The notes under the pieces are model-generated. The model was not told the origin of the DNA. It saw only the letters and a program-made list of their open reading frames with translations, and made no database searches. From contig JACRPQ010000004.1 in NCBI GenBank assembly GCA_016223135.1, forward strand, positions 992,001 through 1,056,000: a stretch of 64,000 bases of DNA. The letters are read 5' to 3'. Shown here one piece after another: positions 1,013 through 50,985 of the stretch. Origin of the DNA: Chloroflexota bacterium. Lineage in GTDB: Bacteria > Chloroflexota > Anaerolineae > Anaerolineales > Villigracilaceae. How positions within the stretch are numbered: position 1 is the first letter of the stretch; each line of letters starts with the position of its first letter. Position numbers and translations under genes: made by a program.

Positions 1013-1972
1013 ATGACTCTCGTCTCCATCGTCACCCCCTCCTACAATCAGGCGCGCTACCTCGAGCAGACCATGCGCTCCGTCCTCGAGCAGGATTATC
1101 CGCGCATCGAGTACCTCGTCATTGACGGCGCATCCACCGACGGCTCGCTGGACATCATCCAAAAATATGCCGACCGCCTGGCGTATTGGGTCTCGGAAAA
1201 GGACAGCGGACAAGCCGACGCCATCAACAAAGGACTGGCGCGCGCAAAGGGCGAAATTGTGGCATGGCTCAACTCCGACGATTTCTACCTGCCCGGCGCA
1301 GTGACGGCGGCGGTGAAGGCATTCGAGACGCATCCAGAAGCGGGCTTAATCTATGGCGATACCGTCGCAGTGGATGAAACAGGCGAAGCCATCCACTTTC
1401 CCCGCTATGCCCAATGGACGCTCGAAGACCTGCTTACCTTTCACATCCTTGGTCAGCCGGCTGTCTTCATGCGCCGCGAGGTTTTGCTCAAGGCTGGCTT
1501 TCTCGACCCATCCTTCCACTTCCTGCTCGATCATCACCTGTGGATTCGCATGGCATCTCTTGCGCCGATGGTTTATGTCCCCGAACGCTGGGCGGCGGGA
1601 CGCTTCCACGAAACCGCCAAGAACGTGGCGCAAGCGGCAAAGTTTGGAGAGGAAGCCTTTCGCATTGTAGAGTGGGCAGAGAGCGATCGGCGTGTATCAG
1701 GCGCGTGGATGCGGGTCTGCCGTCAGTCCCGCGCTGCCGCGTACCGCATCAATGCTCGCTACCTGCTTGATGCCGGTCTAGCCCGCCAGTCGTTCCAATC
1801 GTATTTGCGGAGTCTCTTCATACATCCGCCCACTGCCCTGCTGGAATGGAAACGCATCCTGTTTGCGTTTGTGAGCCTGTTCGGGCTGGGCGCCCTGCGC
1901 CAACACTACAACCGCTGGCGCAAGGCGCGGGCGCAAAAACGCGCGCGCTCAGAACCCAAGGGGAACGGGTAA
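1013..1972 (+). CDS. family 2 glycosyltransferase
   Basis: 319 residues with a GT-A fold start: 'VSIVTPSYNQARYLEQT' at residues 4-20, a nucleotide-binding 'DGASTDGS' at 38-45 and an 'NSDD' metal-binding motif at 87-90. This is a typical inverting GT2 that transfers a sugar from a nucleotide donor to a surface glycan at the cytoplasmic face. A hydrophobic stretch follows near residues 270-295. It lies between two GT39-like membrane glycosyltransferases and is strongly similar to the GT2 at 3529-4308, so the two pairs appear to be a duplicated module. Sugar specificity cannot be read from the sequence. Confidence 0.85.
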   Translation: MTLVSIVTPSYNQARYLEQTMRSVLEQDYPRIEYLVIDGASTDGSLDIIQKYADRLAYWVSEKDSGQADAINKGLARAKGEIVAWLNSDDFYLPGAVTAAVKAFETHPEAGLIYGDTVAVDETGEAIHFPRYAQWTLEDLLTFHILGQPAVFMRREVLLKAGFLDPSFHFLLDHHLWIRMASLAPMVYVPERWAAGRFHETAKNVAQAAKFGEEAFRIVEWAESDRRVSGAWMRVCRQSRAAAYRINARYLLDAGLARQSFQSYLRSLFIHPPTALLEWKRILFAFVSLFGLGALRQHYNRWRKARAQKRARSEPKGNG

Positions 1973-45408: not shown

Positions 45409-47895
45409 TTATGGCGCGTTGAAGCGCCACAATTCCCTGCCTGTACCGTCGCCTCCGTTGGCGCTGAAGTACAGCCGATTGTTGTATGCCGTCAGATAGG
45501 ATGGGAACGAATCGCCCGAGGGGTTCACATCCGCCGCGAGGCTGACGGCAGTGCCGTTGAACTTCCACAGTTCGAAGCCCTTCCCATTGCCTCCGTTGGC
45601 GCTGAAGTACAACGCGCCGTTGAAGACCGCCAGATACGAGGGCGCCGAATCGCCGGCGCCGGCGTTGATGTCAACGGCGAGGGCGGCGTTGGTTCCATCA
45701 TATTTCCAGAGTTCCGTGCCGTTCACGCCGTCGTTGGCGCTGAAGTATAGGATATCGTTCCAGACCTGCAGGTAGGCGGGGTTGGCGTTGCCCACGCCGG
45801 CGTTGATGTCAGTGACGCGGACAGGGGCGTTTGTGCCGTCATATTTCCACAGTTCCGTGCCGAAGGTGTCATTGCTGACCGCGCTGAAATACAGCACGCC
45901 TTTATATTCCGCCAGATGAGACGGGTTCGAATCGCCTGCGCCGGGGTAAATATCGGCGACGCGGGTGGCGTTGACGCCGTCCGTGCGCCAGAGTTCCGTG
46001 CCGCTTACGCCGTCGTTGGCGCTGAAGTACAAGAAGCCGTTATAGACGGTCATGTAAGAGGGGTTGGCGTTTCCTGCGCCGGGGTTGATGTCGGTCAGGC
46101 GTCCCACGGCGCTGCCGTTGAAGCGCCACAGTTCCACGCCGGCGCCATCGTTGCCGTTGGCGCTGAAATACAACGCGCCGTTGTATTCCGTCAAAAAGGA
46201 TGGGTTCGAGCCTTCGGCGCCGGCGAAAATATCCGCCACGCGGCTGGCAGAGTTGGCGGCGGCGTCATACTTCCACAACTCTGCGCCGGCATTGTCATTG
46301 CTGACTGCATTGAAATAAAGAATGCTATTGAACACCGCCAGGTGAGAGGGATTCGAGTCTGCGCTGCCGGGCTGAATATCCGCCACACGTTCAACAGCAG
46401 AGACGGGAGCGGCGAGAGTGAGCTCGAGCGTGTAGCGGCGGTCGGCGGCAGTCACGTTGACCACGTCCACATAATAACTTCCATTGGCAGGCAGCGCCCC
46501 GCTCCACGTCAACGTGGCGTTTTGAGGCTTTAGGACAATGTTCCCGTCGGCTTGTATCACCGCCAGTTCCAGCCCGCTATCGGGCGCGGTGAGGACAGCG
46601 CTGATGGTCTGCCCTTGTGCCGCGCTGAAGACATAACGTTCCTTGCCTTTTGAGGGGGTGATGGTGCCGGAGAGGGTGACTTTGGAACCGATGGTCAGGT
46701 TAAGCGGAATCGGCTCCGCTCCGCCGCTGACTGGATTTCCATCCGCCGAATTGACCGGCACGCGAACCTTGTCGCCGCCTCTCACAGTGGCGATGTTTTG
46801 ATTCGCCTCTTTCAACACATCCACGCGAGCGTTGTAGCGTTGGGCAATGCTCTCCCACGTATCGCCCGGCTGGGCTGTGATGAAGATGACGCACGGCGGA
46901 CCGTAAATTTTGCCGTTGCTGCCGATGTTCGGAACGGTGAGGACATCCACGGGCCAGATTTTGGCGGGGTCTTTCACCTGCGGGTTGGCATTACGCAGAG
47001 CGTTGAAGTCGGCGCCATAACAGCGGGCAATCTGAATCATCCATTCGCCGGGTTGAACGTCGTGTTGGATGGTGGCGCCCTTGGTCAAGCCGGAGGGAGA
47101 CGTTCCGCCCGATACGGTGGTGTTGGCGACGGTCACGCTGAACGGTTGGTTGGTGGTCGCTCCGCCGCCCATGGCTTCAATCGTAAAGGAGAGTTGCGGG
47201 AGAGCGCGGTCGCTTTCTTGAATGTTATAGACGCTCGTGCAGGAGAAGGAGGCGCCCGCCGTGAGCGTCGTATCTGCCCCGCCGCAGTTGACGGTTCCCA
47301 AGCGGTTGTCGCGCAGGGTGAATTGAGCGGGTCCCAGCGTATTTGCGCCGGTGTTTTGGATGATGTAAGAAAGTGTGATGGAAGAGACTGTGTTGTTGTA
47401 ACTCGATGGAGTAGCGGTGACGGTGAGGACGAGGACGCGGGCAAGCGTCATTGGCACGTTGGTGGTGACCGTGTTCGATGTAACGCCGCCGGCGCTGGCG
47501 GTCGCGGCGCTGGTCACCGAAGCGGCGTTCAGGTCGGCTTGGGTGATTTGATAGGAGCCGGCGCAATCCAGGCTTTCGGACGGATCGAAAGAGTCATTCA
47601 GGTTGCCGACGGTGTTGACGGCTGGGCAGGAGATGGCGGTGACTTTTGTGTCGGTCACGGTCACAGGTCCGTTGAGAGCCGTGCTGCCGGAGTTGGTCAC
47701 CGTATATCGAAAGACAATCGTCTGCCCGACGGTATTGAATGTCCCGCTTTGTGCCTGAACGGTCAACGTCAGTTTGGCTCCTTCTCCTCCTGAAAAGGCG
47801 GCTTGCTGCGTTTCGGGCGCCCCGCCGAGATTGCAGGCATACAGGAGAAATGCAAAAATTAAAACAATAGCGCCGAGGGAGAGAATTTTCTGCAT
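45409..47895 (-). CDS. LysM lipoprotein with DUF11-like and ELWxxDGT repeats
   Basis: 828 residues from ATG 47895 (AAAGGA upstream). Lipobox 'LLYAC' ends at Cys21. Two DUF11-like Ig modules (about 40-260) precede two LysM motifs (about 275-381, 'HDVQPGEWMIQIARCYGADFNALRNANP' and 'AQPGDTWESIAQRYNARVDVLKEANQN'). A PPC-type beta domain follows (about 397-495), then seven copies of a repeat with 'YFSANDGVNGTELWKYDGTNA' (ELWxxDGT). LysM should bind peptidoglycan. The repeat part resembles surface proteins of unknown function. Confidence 0.85.
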   Translation of the reverse strand: MQKILSLGAIVLIFAFLLYACNLGGAPETQQAAFSGGEGAKLTLTVQAQSGTFNTVGQTIVFRYTVTNSGSTALNGPVTVTDTKVTAISCPAVNTVGNLNDSFDPSESLDCAGSYQITQADLNAASVTSAATASAGGVTSNTVTTNVPMTLARVLVLTVTATPSSYNNTVSSITLSYIIQNTGANTLGPAQFTLRDNRLGTVNCGGADTTLTAGASFSCTSVYNIQESDRALPQLSFTIEAMGGGATTNQPFSVTVANTTVSGGTSPSGLTKGATIQHDVQPGEWMIQIARCYGADFNALRNANPQVKDPAKIWPVDVLTVPNIGSNGKIYGPPCVIFITAQPGDTWESIAQRYNARVDVLKEANQNIATVRGGDKVRVPVNSADGNPVSGGAEPIPLNLTIGSKVTLSGTITPSKGKERYVFSAAQGQTISAVLTAPDSGLELAVIQADGNIVLKPQNATLTWSGALPANGSYYVDVVNVTAADRRYTLELTLAAPVSAVERVADIQPGSADSNPSHLAVFNSILYFNAVSNDNAGAELWKYDAAANSASRVADIFAGAEGSNPSFLTEYNGALYFSANGNDGAGVELWRFNGSAVGRLTDINPGAGNANPSYMTVYNGFLYFSANDGVSGTELWRTDGVNATRVADIYPGAGDSNPSHLAEYKGVLYFSAVSNDTFGTELWKYDGTNAPVRVTDINAGVGNANPAYLQVWNDILYFSANDGVNGTELWKYDGTNAALAVDINAGAGDSAPSYLAVFNGALYFSANGGNGKGFELWKFNGTAVSLAADVNPSGDSFPSYLTAYNNRLYFSANGGDGTGRELWRFNAP

Positions 47896-47995
47896 GGTCC
47901 ACATCCTTTTCTGGCGATATTCCTCGCCGACTCGATGCTATCAGTATAGCATGAACAATAGACGAAAAATCCACTGCGGTTGGTTCCATGAGGGT

Positions 47996-48003
47996 GGTAT
48001 AAT
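47996..48003 (+). promoter_or_regulatory. extended -10 promoter of the alaS leader
   Basis: TGG then TATAAT (47998-48003; the TG begins at 47995) ends 7 nt before the leader peptide ATG at 48011. This spacing predicts a leaderless message that starts with the leader-peptide AUG. The -35 region is poor, as expected of extended -10 promoters. Confidence 0.6.
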
Positions 48004-48010
48004 GCGCCCC

Positions 48011-48088
48011 ATGTTCAAGCGAACCGACATTTTCCAAGCCGCCGCATCGGCTAGCAGCCCGCATCGGGACTGTTCTATGAGCGTGTGA
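48011..48088 (+). CDS. 25-residue leader peptide with an alanine codon cluster
   Basis: MFKRTDIFQAAASAS followed by SPHRDCSMSV; TGA at 48086. Codons 10, 11, 12 and 14 are GCC, GCC, GCA and GCT, so four of five consecutive codons are alanine, directly upstream of alaS. The -10 box lies 7 nt before the ATG. The ORF end overlaps the alternative RNA hairpins, and a terminator follows. The simplest reading is a regulatory leader peptide of a tRNA-charging attenuator. Whether it is translated is untested. Confidence 0.6.
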   Translation: MFKRTDIFQAAASASSPHRDCSMSV

Positions 48089-48146
48089 CGGCGCAGCGAA
48101 ACCGACGCCCTCCCAGTCCCGAATCTCCGCAGGTTCGGGATTTTTT
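48055..48146 (+). promoter_or_regulatory. predicted transcription attenuator of alaS
   Basis: Region 1:2 is CAGCCCG-CAT-CGGG(A)CTG (48055-48072). Region 2 (TCGGGACTG, 48064-48072) is also a perfect 9-bp complement of CAGTCCCGA (48114-48122). That segment forms the left arm of the terminator stem TCCCGAATCT-CCGC-AGGTTCGGGA (48117-48140), followed by six T residues. Region 2:3 and the terminator cannot form together. A ribosome stalled at the Ala codons would cover region 1 and favour 2:3, hence readthrough. Confidence 0.6.
48117..48146 (+). terminator. intrinsic terminator of the alaS leader
   Basis: A 10-bp stem (one G-U pair) with CCGC loop, then TTTTTT at 48141-48146. It lies 73 nt upstream of the alaS start codon. 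Confidence 0.9.
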
Positions 48147-48179
48147 CTTCTGCAACCTTCCGCTTTCTACTTTCCATCT

Positions 48180-48188
48180 TGTTATAAT
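48180..48188 (+). promoter_or_regulatory. second, extended -10 element upstream of alaS
   Basis: TGT followed by TATAAT (48183-48188) lies between the leader terminator and the alaS ribosome-binding site (TTGGAGA, 48209-48215). If active, it would give an attenuator-independent level of alaS transcription. Confidence 0.45.
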
Positions 48189-48219
48189 TCGCCCGTCATC
48201 TCAACCTCTTGGAGACCGC

Positions 48220-50985
48220 ATGACCAAAAAACTCTCAGGCAACCAGATTCGCCAGGATTTCATCAACTTTTTCGTCGAGCGCGGACACACCGCCGTGCCG
48301 TCCATGTCGCTTGTGCCGGGCGGCGACGCAACGCTTCTCTTCACAAACTCGGGCATGGTGCAGTTCAAGGACGTTTTTCTCGGCACCGACAAAAAGCCCT
48401 ACACCCGCGCCGTTGACTCGCAAAAGTGTATGCGCGTCGCCGGCAAACACAACGACCTCGAAGACGTGGGGCGCGACGACACGCATCATACCTTCTTTGA
48501 AATGCTCGGCAACTGGTCCTTTGGCGACTACTACAAAAAGGAAGCCATCGCCTGGTCTTGGGAACTGCTTACCGAGGTCTGGGGTCTCCCCAAGGACAAA
48601 CTCTACGCCACCTGTTTTGAAGACGACAAAGGCAGCATCCCGCGCGACGACGAAGCCGCCGAAATTTGGAAACAGCAGCCCGGCTTCGACCCCTCGCACG
48701 TTCTCTTCTTTGGGCGCAAGGAAAACTTCTGGCAGATGGCAGAAACCGGTCCGTGCGGTCCGTGTTCCGAAATCCACATTGACCTCGGCGAGGAACGCGA
48801 CAACCTGCGCGGCAAACCGCATCGCTGCGGCGTGAACGGCGAATGCACCCGCTTCCTCGAACTCTGGAACAACGTCTTCATCCAATACAATCTCTTTGAC
48901 GATGGCCGCCTCGAGCCCCTCCCCGCCAAACACGTGGACACCGGCATGGGCTTTGAACGCATCGTCTCCGTGCTGCAAGGCGTGGACTCCAACTACAAGA
49001 CCGACCTCTTCGCCGGTTCGCTTGCCGTCCTGCGCTCGCTCACCGGTCACAGCGAAGAGCAAATGTACGCCGATTTCACCCCCTACCGCGTCATCGCCGA
49101 CCATGCCCGCGCCGCGGCTTTCCTCATCGCCGACGGCGTCGTCCCCGGCAACGCAGGGCGCAATTATGTCACGCGCATGATCATCCGCCGCGCGGCGCGC
49201 TTCGGCGCCAAAATCGGATTGCACGAACCTTTCCTTGCCAAAGTGGCGCAGGCGGTGATTGACCAATATGGCGACTTCTACCCCGAACTGCGCAAAGCAC
49301 AGCCCGCCATTCTCGATCACCTCACGCGGGAAGAAATCCGCTTCGCACGGACCGTTGAAGCTGGCACCGCCCATTTGGAGAATCTCCTCTCGAACCTTCG
49401 CGCCTCCAATCAGACCGTCCTCGACGGACGTCAAGCCTTCGACCTCTACGCCACCTATGGGTTGCCCTTTGAAATCTCGCGCGACATCGCCCGCGAGCAG
49501 GGACTCGATGTGGACGAGAAGGGCTTCAACCAAGCCAAAGAAGAACATGCCCTCGCCTCCGGCGGCGGCAAAGCCATGGGCAAACTCGGCGGCGAAGACG
49601 CTGAATTCTTCGCCGGCATCCTCAAAGACCTGCAAGCCAAAGGCAAACTCGGTGCGCAGGGCGTGGAATACGATCCCTACACCAGCCCGCGAGTCGAAGG
49701 GGAAGTGTTGGCGCTGATTGTCAATGGACAACTGGTTGAATCTGCCTCGCTCGACGACCAGGTGGAAGTCATCCTGCCCAAGACCGGCTTCTACATCGAA
49801 GCCGGCGGTCAGGTGGATGACACGGGTTACATCCGCTCCGCCCCCCTCCGTCTCCCCCCAAATTTGGAGAATTTGGGGGGAGTGTCCCGAAGGGACGAGG
49901 GGGGATGGGAAATCGAAGTCACTGCCATGCGCCGCCCCTCGGCGGGCGTCATCGTTCATGTCGGCACGGTCATCTCCGGGCAACCCAAAGTAGGCGACAG
50001 GTGTCTCGCCGAAGTGGATATGCCCCGCCGTCATGACATCATGCGGAACCATACCGCCACACACCTGCTGCACAAAGCGCTGCACACCGTCTTGAGCGAC
50101 CAGGCAAAGCAGGCAGGCTCGCTTGTTGCGCCGGATCGCCTGCGCTTCGACTTCACCCATCCCGAAGCATTGACCGCCGAACAACTCGAGCGCGTCGAGC
50201 GGCTGGTCAACGAGGCGATTGCCGCCGACATGCCCGTCCACAAGGAAGTCAAATCGTTGGAAGAAGCAAAGAAGGAAGGCGCGATGGCGCTCTTCGGCGA
50301 AAAATACGGAGAGACCGTCCGCACGATTTCCATCCTTGAAGATGAGCAGAGCAAATATTCGTATGAACTGTGCGGCGGCACGCACCTCGAACGCACCTCC
50401 GACATTGGCATGTTCCTCATCGTCAGCGAAGGGTCGGTGGCGGCGAACGTCCGCCGTATCGAGGCAGTGACCGGGCGCGCCGCCTACGAACTCATCCAGA
50501 AGCGTTTCAAGACCCTCAAGCAGGCAGCCGCGCTCCTCAAATCCAGCCTGGATGAAGTGCCGCAGAAAGTGGAAAGCGTGCAAAGCGAAGTGGCAGAACT
50601 CAAAAAGGAACTTGCCAGCCTGCGCGCCCAGCAGGCGCTCTCCACTTTCAACCTGCTGCTTTCCAACCTTCAAACCGTGAAAGATGTACATGTGCTGGCG
50701 GCGGACTTCCCCGGCGCGGATGCCGACACCCTGCGCCTGCTCGCCGATAAATTCCGCGAGAAATATCCTCAAAACGGCGCGGCGCTGCTTGCGGCGGATT
50801 CCATCGTCATTGCGGCAGTGACCGAAGACCTCGTCAAGCGCGGGTTGAAAGCAGGCGATCTCATCGCCGGCGTCGGTGGGAAGGGAGGCGGACGCCCCCA
50901 TCTCGCGCAGGGTAGCCTGCCCAAAGGTCAGGAAAAAGAAGCGTTGTCGAAACTGCCGAAGGTCATCCAGGAGCGGCTGAAGTAA
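48220..50985 (+). CDS. alaS: alanyl-tRNA synthetase
   Basis: 921 residues from ATG 48220, preceded by TTGGAGA. The class II motifs are in 'LLFTNSGMVQFKDVFLG' and 'QKCMRVAGKHNDLEDVG'. The editing-domain zinc site is 'HTATHLLH' (His611, His615) and 'CGGTH' (Cys718, His722). The C-terminal domain ends with 'GGKGGGRPHLAQGS'. The enzyme charges tRNA(Ala). Oddities: residues about 541-562 ('PLRLPPNLENLGGVSRRDEGG') are an insertion encoded by a palindromic repeat within a conserved beta-rich region. A leader peptide and attenuator lie upstream. Confidence 0.97.
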   Translation: MTKKLSGNQIRQDFINFFVERGHTAVPSMSLVPGGDATLLFTNSGMVQFKDVFLGTDKKPYTRAVDSQKCMRVAGKHNDLEDVGRDDTHHTFFEMLGNWSFGDYYKKEAIAWSWELLTEVWGLPKDKLYATCFEDDKGSIPRDDEAAEIWKQQPGFDPSHVLFFGRKENFWQMAETGPCGPCSEIHIDLGEERDNLRGKPHRCGVNGECTRFLELWNNVFIQYNLFDDGRLEPLPAKHVDTGMGFERIVSVLQGVDSNYKTDLFAGSLAVLRSLTGHSEEQMYADFTPYRVIADHARAAAFLIADGVVPGNAGRNYVTRMIIRRAARFGAKIGLHEPFLAKVAQAVIDQYGDFYPELRKAQPAILDHLTREEIRFARTVEAGTAHLENLLSNLRASNQTVLDGRQAFDLYATYGLPFEISRDIAREQGLDVDEKGFNQAKEEHALASGGGKAMGKLGGEDAEFFAGILKDLQAKGKLGAQGVEYDPYTSPRVEGEVLALIVNGQLVESASLDDQVEVILPKTGFYIEAGGQVDDTGYIRSAPLRLPPNLENLGGVSRRDEGGWEIEVTAMRRPSAGVIVHVGTVISGQPKVGDRCLAEVDMPRRHDIMRNHTATHLLHKALHTVLSDQAKQAGSLVAPDRLRFDFTHPEALTAEQLERVERLVNEAIAADMPVHKEVKSLEEAKKEGAMALFGEKYGETVRTISILEDEQSKYSYELCGGTHLERTSDIGMFLIVSEGSVAANVRRIEAVTGRAAYELIQKRFKTLKQAAALLKSSLDEVPQKVESVQSEVAELKKELASLRAQQALSTFNLLLSNLQTVKDVHVLAADFPGADADTLRLLADKFREKYPQNGAALLAADSIVIAAVTEDLVKRGLKAGDLIAGVGGKGGGRPHLAQGSLPKGQEKEALSKLPKVIQERLK
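49841..49904. repeat. palindromic repeat inserted in frame in alaS
   Basis: Outer arms CCCCCCTC and GAGGGGGG enclose two hairpins: CTCCCCCCAAATT/AATTTGGGGGGAG (49852-49864 and 49870-49882, perfect 13 bp) and GTCCC-GAA-GGGAC (49884-49896). The 64-bp segment has a base composition and repeat structure unlike the rest of the gene. Confidence 0.75.

What the first reader, a model, noticed from the sequence alone, without database searches (positions are those of the whole stretch)
47995..48220. Candidate leader-peptide attenuator controlling alaS by alanine-tRNA supply
Seen: an extended -10, then a 25-codon ORF starting 7 nt later, with four Ala codons in five (codons 10-14). Region 2 (48064-48072) pairs either with region 1 (48055-48061) or with region 3 (48114-48122, perfect 9 bp). 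Region 3 is also the left arm of a strong terminator (48117-48146). This is the classical trp/his-type layout, here for an aminoacyl-tRNA synthetase. Known: in Firmicutes alaS is usually T-box controlled, and no T-box hallmarks appear here. Inferred: low Ala-tRNA stalls the ribosome on the leader, frees region 2 and allows transcription into alaS. The leader would also be translated from a leaderless message. A second -10 at 48183 may add an unregulated level.
Basis: partly seen in the sequence, partly recalled or inferred. Interest (0 to 1): 0.88.

Follow-up and report, generated by a model that had tools for sequence, protein, structure and literature searches.

The report
Alanine leader-peptide attenuator before alaS
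Just before the gene for the enzyme that charges tRNA with alanine, this Anaerolineales bacterium has a tiny alanine-rich reading frame and a switchable stop signal that probably raise enzyme production when charged alanine-tRNA runs short; the mechanism is a classical one, found here in a bacterial group where our searches listed no report of it.

Summary
The window has an extended -10, a 25-codon ORF 7 nt later with AAASA at codons 10-14, mutually exclusive 1:2 and 2:3 pairings, a terminator, a second -10 and alaS. A model of 13 leaders finds 48 strong places in 152 family genomes (35 outside the training set); 47 end 45-221 nt before alaS. A scan with no alanine criterion finds "-10 + short ORF + terminator" in 49 of 146 alaS upstreams (16 of 110 not chosen by the model); all 49 ORFs are Ala-rich; controls give none. 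Alanine is 30% of codons in frame, 5-6% in the other frames. Four genera elsewhere in the order carry Ala leaders with other terminators. The same genome has a Tyr leader before tyrS (20 of 30 tyrS loci); relatives have His leaders before hisG. Not shown: transcript ends, translation, induction. The window's 2:3 helix is too invariant for a covariation test, and a conserved downstream promoter means the leader modulates rather than gates alaS. In most relatives the antiterminator seems to invade the terminator loop and 3' arm. Closest precedent: AlaL at alaS in Streptomyces lividans.

The parts
47995..48003 (+). P1 extended -10 (TGGTATAAT) driving the leader
   Evidence: ATG 6-9 nt after a perfect TATAAT in 44 of 45 full family leaders (the 45th, L067, has TATACT)
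48011..48088 (+). leader ORF, 25 codons + TGA, probably translated from a leaderless message
   Evidence: Ala-rich ORF in the same place in 51 leaders
48038..48052 (+). control codons 10-14 (GCC GCC GCA TCG GCT)
48055..48061 (+). region 1 (CAGCCCG), pairs with region 2
48064..48072 (+). region 2 (TCGGGACTG), antiterminator strand
48114..48122 (+). region 3 (CAGTCCCGA), partner of region 2 and 5' arm of the terminator
48115..48146 (+). intrinsic terminator (3:4 hairpin and T run)
   Evidence: the corresponding hairpin is 100% paired in 38 relatives
48180..48188 (+). P2 extended -10 (TGTTATAAT), second promoter of alaS
   Evidence: perfect TATAAT within 75 nt of alaS in 126 of 146 upstreams
48210..48214 (+). 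Shine-Dalgarno-like TGGAG before alaS
   Evidence: GGAG, GAGG or AGGA in the last 18 nt of 126 of 146 upstreams
48220..50985 (+). alaS, alanyl-tRNA synthetase (921 aa)
   Evidence: TIGR00344 equivalog, 851.1 bits, cut-off 457.05; Pfam tRNA-synt_2c

Best explanation
It is a leader-peptide transcription attenuator that senses Ala-tRNA charging and controls alaS. Transcription starts at or next to the leader's ATG (inferred from the 7-nt spacing), and a ribosome translates the leaderless leader while RNA polymerase proceeds. With ample Ala-tRNA the ribosome reaches the stop codon, covers region 2, and the 3:4 terminator forms, so most P1 transcripts end near 48146. With little Ala-tRNA the ribosome stalls on codons 10-14, covers region 1 and frees region 2, which captures region 3 before region 4 is made; transcription reads through into alaS. 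P2, downstream of the terminator, gives basal alaS expression. Shown by computation: the layout, its place before alaS, the conserved Ala codons, the mutually exclusive pairings. Inferred: leaderless translation, stalling, read-through and its size.
For: Model R1 (13 sequences) finds 48 places with E <= 2e-10 in 152 family genomes, 35 of them outside the training set; 47 of 48 end 45-221 nt before the first matched alaS residue, same strand. A scan without any Ala criterion hits 49 of 146 upstreams, all with Ala >= 15%, and 0 in both controls; leaving out the 36 upstreams fetched through the model it hits 16 of 110. Ala 29.8% in frame against 5.8 and 5.4% in the other frames. In the window, RNA ending before the 3' arm has P(2:3) 0.96-0.97 with the A site on Ala codon 10, 11, 12 or 14 and 0.37 without ribosome; at the stop codon region 2 is covered. 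Versions with other sequence in four genera elsewhere in the order. Independent Tyr leader at tyrS in the same genome and in 20 of 30 tyrS loci, His leaders in 8 of 20 hisG loci. Leaderless starts are common in the genome: 158 TATAATN{5,9}ATG sites against 16 for the reversed pattern.
Against: No RNA or protein data. In full-length equilibrium folding the terminator wins in every ribosome state (P(3:4) 0.82-0.85), so read-through must be kinetic. The low pairing at the stop codon follows largely from the assumed ribosome footprint. The window group's 2:3 helix has no informative covariation. In the six divergent leaders 5'-arm capture is not above shuffles (0 of 6 at rank <= 3 of 60). The window's leader lost 2 nt against its sister and has only 4 Ala. 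P2 is conserved also where the leader is absent; 77 of 152 family genomes gave no match to R1 at E <= 0.1, and none of 21 loci from other orders and classes of the phylum has such a leader.
Confidence: 0.85

Rival explanations
1. An independent small RNA or microprotein gene with its own promoter and terminator that merely sits before alaS.
For: It is a complete promoter-ORF-terminator unit, and alaS has its own conserved promoter. The nucleotides around the stop codon are conserved while the stop codon itself moves.
Against: 47 of 48 strong copies lie directly before alaS; the peptide matches the downstream gene, as it does independently for tyrS and hisG; leaders of other sequence keep the layout and the alanines.
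Confidence: 0.06
2. A riboswitch or T-box that senses alanine or tRNA-Ala directly, the ORF being incidental.
For: T-boxes are known in Chloroflexi for other genes, for example ileS and trp genes in Dehalococcoides (PMC2494555, passages; PMC3766115, passages).
Against: No Rfam match in the window, one chance-level hit at E 4.1 in the leader, none in 37 loci around alaS, the window's own included. In-frame Ala enrichment has no role in such a device.
Confidence: 0.02
3. The family element is real, but the copy in the window no longer responds after its 2-nt deletion, and alaS is driven by P2.
For: Frame shift against sister L036, 4 instead of 7 Ala, stop codon moved downstream; P2 intact.
Against: The Ala run at codons 10-14, regions 1, 2 and 3 and the terminator are intact, and 2:3 capture is above shuffles (rank 3 of 60; 1 of 200).
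Confidence: 0.07

Closest known systems
AlaL leader peptide before alaS in Streptomyces lividans TK24 (PMC8079986, passages)
   Same: Ala-rich short leader (22 aa, 6 Ala) before alaS; [quoted passage not shown]
   Different: Actinobacteria; sequence similarity not tested here; the passages do not say that AlaL is leaderless and give no alternative pairings for it.
trp/his-type ribosome-mediated attenuators, with E. coli pheST as the aminoacyl-tRNA synthetase case (recalled)
   Same: control codons, mutually exclusive pairings, intrinsic terminator, control by stalling.
   Different: Leader without Shine-Dalgarno, ATG 7 nt after the -10; a second promoter between terminator and gene; in most relatives the antiterminator seems to pair with loop and 3' arm of the terminator.
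His leader peptides in Firmicutes before hisS paralogues and his genes (PMC2965389 and PMC9413887, passages)
   Same: leader-peptide attenuation outside Proteobacteria and Actinobacteria, a synthetase gene included.
   Different: other phylum, other amino acid.

Membership tests
ribosome-mediated (trp/his-type) transcription attenuator | short ORF with clustered codons of the amino acid handled by the downstream gene | tested here: met
ribosome-mediated (trp/his-type) transcription attenuator | intrinsic terminator between leader and gene | tested here: met
ribosome-mediated (trp/his-type) transcription attenuator | mutually exclusive 1:2, 2:3 and 3:4 pairings | tested here: met
   window; 2:3 above chance in the window (1 of 200; rank 3 of 60). 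Less clear in type B and in family f8
ribosome-mediated (trp/his-type) transcription attenuator | covariation supporting the alternative pairings | tested here: inconclusive
   3:4 supported; 1:2 of type B 98.1% paired, its two-sided changes doubtful; window group 1:2 and 2:3 nearly invariant
ribosome-mediated (trp/his-type) transcription attenuator | leader translated, and read-through induced by lack of the charged tRNA | not testable with these tools
   needs transcript mapping, ribosome profiling and reporters
T-box | match to a T-box covariance model | tested here: not met
   no Rfam match at gathering thresholds; lax search
Streptomyces alaL | homology of the leader sequence | not tested
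   the S. lividans DNA was not fetched

The most novel reading that the evidence does not exclude
Anaerolineales run a whole set of leaderless or nearly leaderless, amino-acid-matched leader-peptide attenuators (Ala at alaS, Tyr at tyrS, His at hisG) that have settled on unrelated terminator sequences, and the commonest alaS form uses an unusual antiterminator in which the strand next to the leader's stop codon invades the loop and 3' arm of the terminator rather than its 5' arm.
Probability: 0.5. Interest if true: 0.68.

Novelty: new member of a known kind. Interest (0 to 1): 0.58.

Why it matters
It places amino-acid-matched leader-peptide attenuation, synthetase genes included, in Chloroflexota, where the searches made here listed no report of it and where T-boxes are the known charged-tRNA sensors (PMC3766115, passages). 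It suggests that the device can work from leaderless messages, gives simple predictions for genomes that have almost no genetics, and offers a natural series of terminators of differing sequence carrying the same switch.

Tried and rejected
Considered and rejected: (1) T-box. AGGGTGGTA at 47991-47999 resembles the T-box motif (motif recalled), but it overlaps the -10 and Rfam finds nothing. (2) Independent sRNA gene, see rivals. (3) For the 38 type-B leaders, TTGAGACTG:CAGTCCCGA as antiterminator: only 77.8% of cells paired, with an A-C mismatch in 37 of 38; GAACCTG:CAGGTTC fits better (91.4%), although its one two-sided change is within chance (73 of 500 shuffles). (4) An alaS leader outside the order: none in 21 loci from other orders and classes of the phylum.

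Led nowhere: Rfam with lax threshold; duplex ranks of type B are mixed (5' arm 2-190 of 200, 3' arm 2-181 of 200); one short ORF with terminator in the window's genome (L250) has no clear amino acid match; Anaerolineae with leaderless gave one paper, not read. Lopatovskaya et al. 2010 (Mol Biol 44:128), seen only as a title in a reference list, may list further cases. Most papers in the search listings were not opened; those opened (PMC8079986, PMC2494555, PMC4833913, PMC9413887, PMC2965389, PMC3766115) were seen as passages only.

Bias and dropped rows: 36 of the 146 upstreams were fetched because model R1 hit them (33 with the layout), so 49 of 146 is no prevalence; among the other 110 the layout is in 12 of 30 best alaS matches, 0 of 4 and 4 of 76. 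L008 has a leader that the scans missed. L110 gave no alaS start; L152 was 63 nt and fell under the 200-nt limit. The 51 leaders passed a filter of at least 4 Ala; its list of failures was empty. L027, L076, L078 and the second G133 copy were left out of alignments A2 and A3 and of the 51. The tyrS and hisG scans allowed one mismatch in the -10 and list the ORF richest in the expected residue first; 19 of 20 tyrS loci with a hit had only one candidate.
Full report
Observation. The -10 is TGGTATAAT (47995-48003), the ATG follows 7 nt after TATAAT, the ORF is MFKRTDIFQAAASASSPHRDCSMSV (48011-48088), region 2 (48064-48072) is complementary over 9 bp to region 3 (48114-48122), and alaS starts at 48220 (TIGR00344 equivalog).

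Conservation. alaS was located in 61 of 61 relatives and the DNA upstream of the 30 best was read. A covariance model of 13 of these leaders, run on 152 family genomes, gave matches at E <= 0.1 in 75 of 152 and 48 places at E <= 2e-10 in 47 genomes; 35 of the 48 are outside the training set. Of the 48, 47 end 45-221 nt before the first matched alaS residue on the same strand; the exception is a second, Ala-poor copy 1.7 kb upstream in G133 (the G004 distance, 86 nt, follows). Two of the 48 (G004, G139) are truncated. In 44 of the 45 full leaders the ATG lies 6-9 nt after a perfect TATAAT, which implies a leaderless message (inference).

Not chosen by alanine. A scan asking only for TATAAT, 5-10 nt, ATG, an ORF of 8-45 codons and a terminator hits 49 of 146 distinct alaS upstreams; all 49 ORFs have at least 15% Ala; reverse complements give 0 of 146 and ten shuffles of all give 0. 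Of the 146, 36 had been fetched because of the model; among the other 110 there are 16 hits. In 51 distinct leaders Ala makes 418 of 1402 codons in frame, 78 and 73 of 1351 in the other frames; in the 18 type-B leaders of 26 codons, codon differences are synonymous more often in frame (0.254) than out of frame (0.136).

Same layout, other sequence. In genera g17 (L077, L080), g43 (L103) and g12 (L105) of the family and g27 of family f8 (L131, L142, spacing 10 nt) the leader is again Ala-rich, for example MKTDKTLIFSNTKAAAMAAAASAGAVAGAATSESQTVA, with other terminators. The best duplex of the leader with the terminator's 5' arm ranks 17, 5, 3 and 4 of 200 shuffles in L077, L080, L103 and L105, with AGCCGGGGC against GCCCCGGC in L077, but only 46 and 20 of 200 in family f8. 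None of 21 loci from other orders and classes of the phylum shows such a leader.

Pairings. Type A (7 leaders, the window included): 1:2 91.8% and 2:3 90.5% of cells paired but almost invariant, so covariation is silent. Type B (38 leaders): 3:4 100% paired with two compensatory pairs (4 of 500 shuffles); 1:2, which overlaps the Ala codons, 98.1% paired (0 of 500), but its two two-sided changes appear, by eye, to come from L050, whose own helix CCATCACAG:CTGTGATGG lies in another register; GAACCTG with the terminator's CAGGTTC 91.4% paired with one two-sided change, within chance (73 of 500).

Folding of unfinished transcripts. In the window the A site on Ala codon 10, 11, 12 or 14 gives P(2:3) of 0.96-0.97, no ribosome 0.37; at the stop codon region 2 is covered, so 2:3 cannot form. 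In type B the CAGGTTC of the terminator is captured by the leader with mean probability 0.88 when stalled on Ala (above 0.5 in 38 of 38), 0.03 at the stop codon and 0.36 without ribosome; shuffled leaders give 0.21, and 33 of 38 leaders rank <= 3 of 60 (these leaders share ancestry and are not independent). 5'-arm capture when stalled: type A 0.70 against 0.46 (4 of 7 at that rank, the window included), type B 0.55 against 0.41 (10 of 38), the six divergent leaders 0.70 against 0.58 (0 of 6); loop/3'-arm capture in type A 0.55 against 0.29 (3 of 7). So the window follows the classical 5'-arm scheme, type B rather a loop/3'-arm scheme. At full length the terminator is preferred in every state (P(3:4) 0.82-0.85), so the switch must be kinetic.

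Second promoter. A perfect TATAAT lies within 75 nt of alaS in 126 of 146 upstreams, most often 32 nt before the start codon, and a Shine-Dalgarno-like motif in the last 18 nt of 126 of 146. alaS is thus probably transcribed without the leader as well; the attenuator adds a regulated part.

Independent support in the same genome. TATAATN{5,9}ATG occurs 158 times in the genome, the reversed pattern 16 times. Of 96 sites read, 15 have ORFs of at most 60 codons and 3 of these a terminator: the alaS leader, MSAVCFAYVCYYCHP directly before tyrS, and one unexplained; 16 further sites gave no short ORF. tyrS leaders with 2-4 Tyr codons and a perfect TATAAT 6-8 nt before the ATG occur in 20 of 30 tyrS loci, 12 of them with three or four Tyr in a row. 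hisG leaders with 3-7 His occur in 8 of 20 loci, mostly with an imperfect -10 and 7-10 nt spacing, and by eye also in L079, which the scan missed. TyrS and HisG were confirmed by TIGR00234 and TIGR00070. Three amino acids matched to three genes are hard to explain without ribosomes stalling on cognate codons.

Known relatives. The nearest precedent is AlaL at alaS in S. lividans (PMC8079986, passages). In 2010 leader-peptide systems were said not to have been shown outside Proteobacteria and Actinobacteria before His leaders were found in Firmicutes (PMC2965389, passages). A survey of Rfam motifs that includes five Chloroflexi genomes reports T-boxes there and thinks amino acid attenuators of gamma-proteobacterial origin (PMC3766115, passages). 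Searches with Chloroflexi or Anaerolineae and attenuation or leaderless terms listed no report of such leaders; one paper that could hold cases was not available. The mechanism is therefore known and this is a new member in a new group; the possible new trait is the loop/3'-arm antiterminator of type B.

Organism. Close named matches are Anaerolineales or Anaerolineae MAGs; JAGUZU010000022.1, an Anaerolineales MAG contig, has the length of contig G123:C143 (16,988 bases).

Noticed in passing
L187 about 1408-1515 (minus strand), genome G000 C1 about 205,050: Tyr-rich leaderless leader MSAVCFAYVCYYCHP with terminator directly before tyrS; Tyr leaders in 20 of 30 tyrS loci.
   Followed up: partly
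L079 (G131), also L297, L299, L301, L305, L307, L308, L313, L314: His-rich leaders (up to HHHHHH) with terminators before hisG; -10 to ATG spacing 7-10 nt.
   Followed up: partly
L027 about 1139-1405 and L076: In two genomes the 5' part of the alaS leader is replaced by the end of a DUF4926-type gene (Pfam PF16277 for the L027 protein; L076 by eye) whose last codons coincide with the leader's conserved tail (EPATA, stop). In L049 a similar reading-frame end lies just before the leader promoter (by eye). Suggests recombination at the shared sequence.
   Followed up: partly
L027 674-769: A partial extra copy of the alaS start (residues 1-32, 72% identical) lies upstream of the intact alaS in G004.
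   Followed up: no
L075 (G133), leader copy 1.7 kb upstream of alaS: Second leader-terminator copy with a single alanine (MQQTFTSSRPLYTRSVTA), a probable decayed duplicate.
   Followed up: no
window 48050-48060 against L036: The window's leader lacks 2 nt present in its sister genome, which shifts the frame after the Ala run and moves the stop codon.
   Followed up: partly
L250 about 56-183 (G000 C9 312,440): Short ORF MYRTALFMLNPLPSPASDHTPAWSG with a terminator and no evident amino acid match.
   Followed up: no
window 45409-47904, minus strand: Large divergent gene next to P1; its C-terminal part repeats ELW-type motifs (by eye).
   Followed up: no
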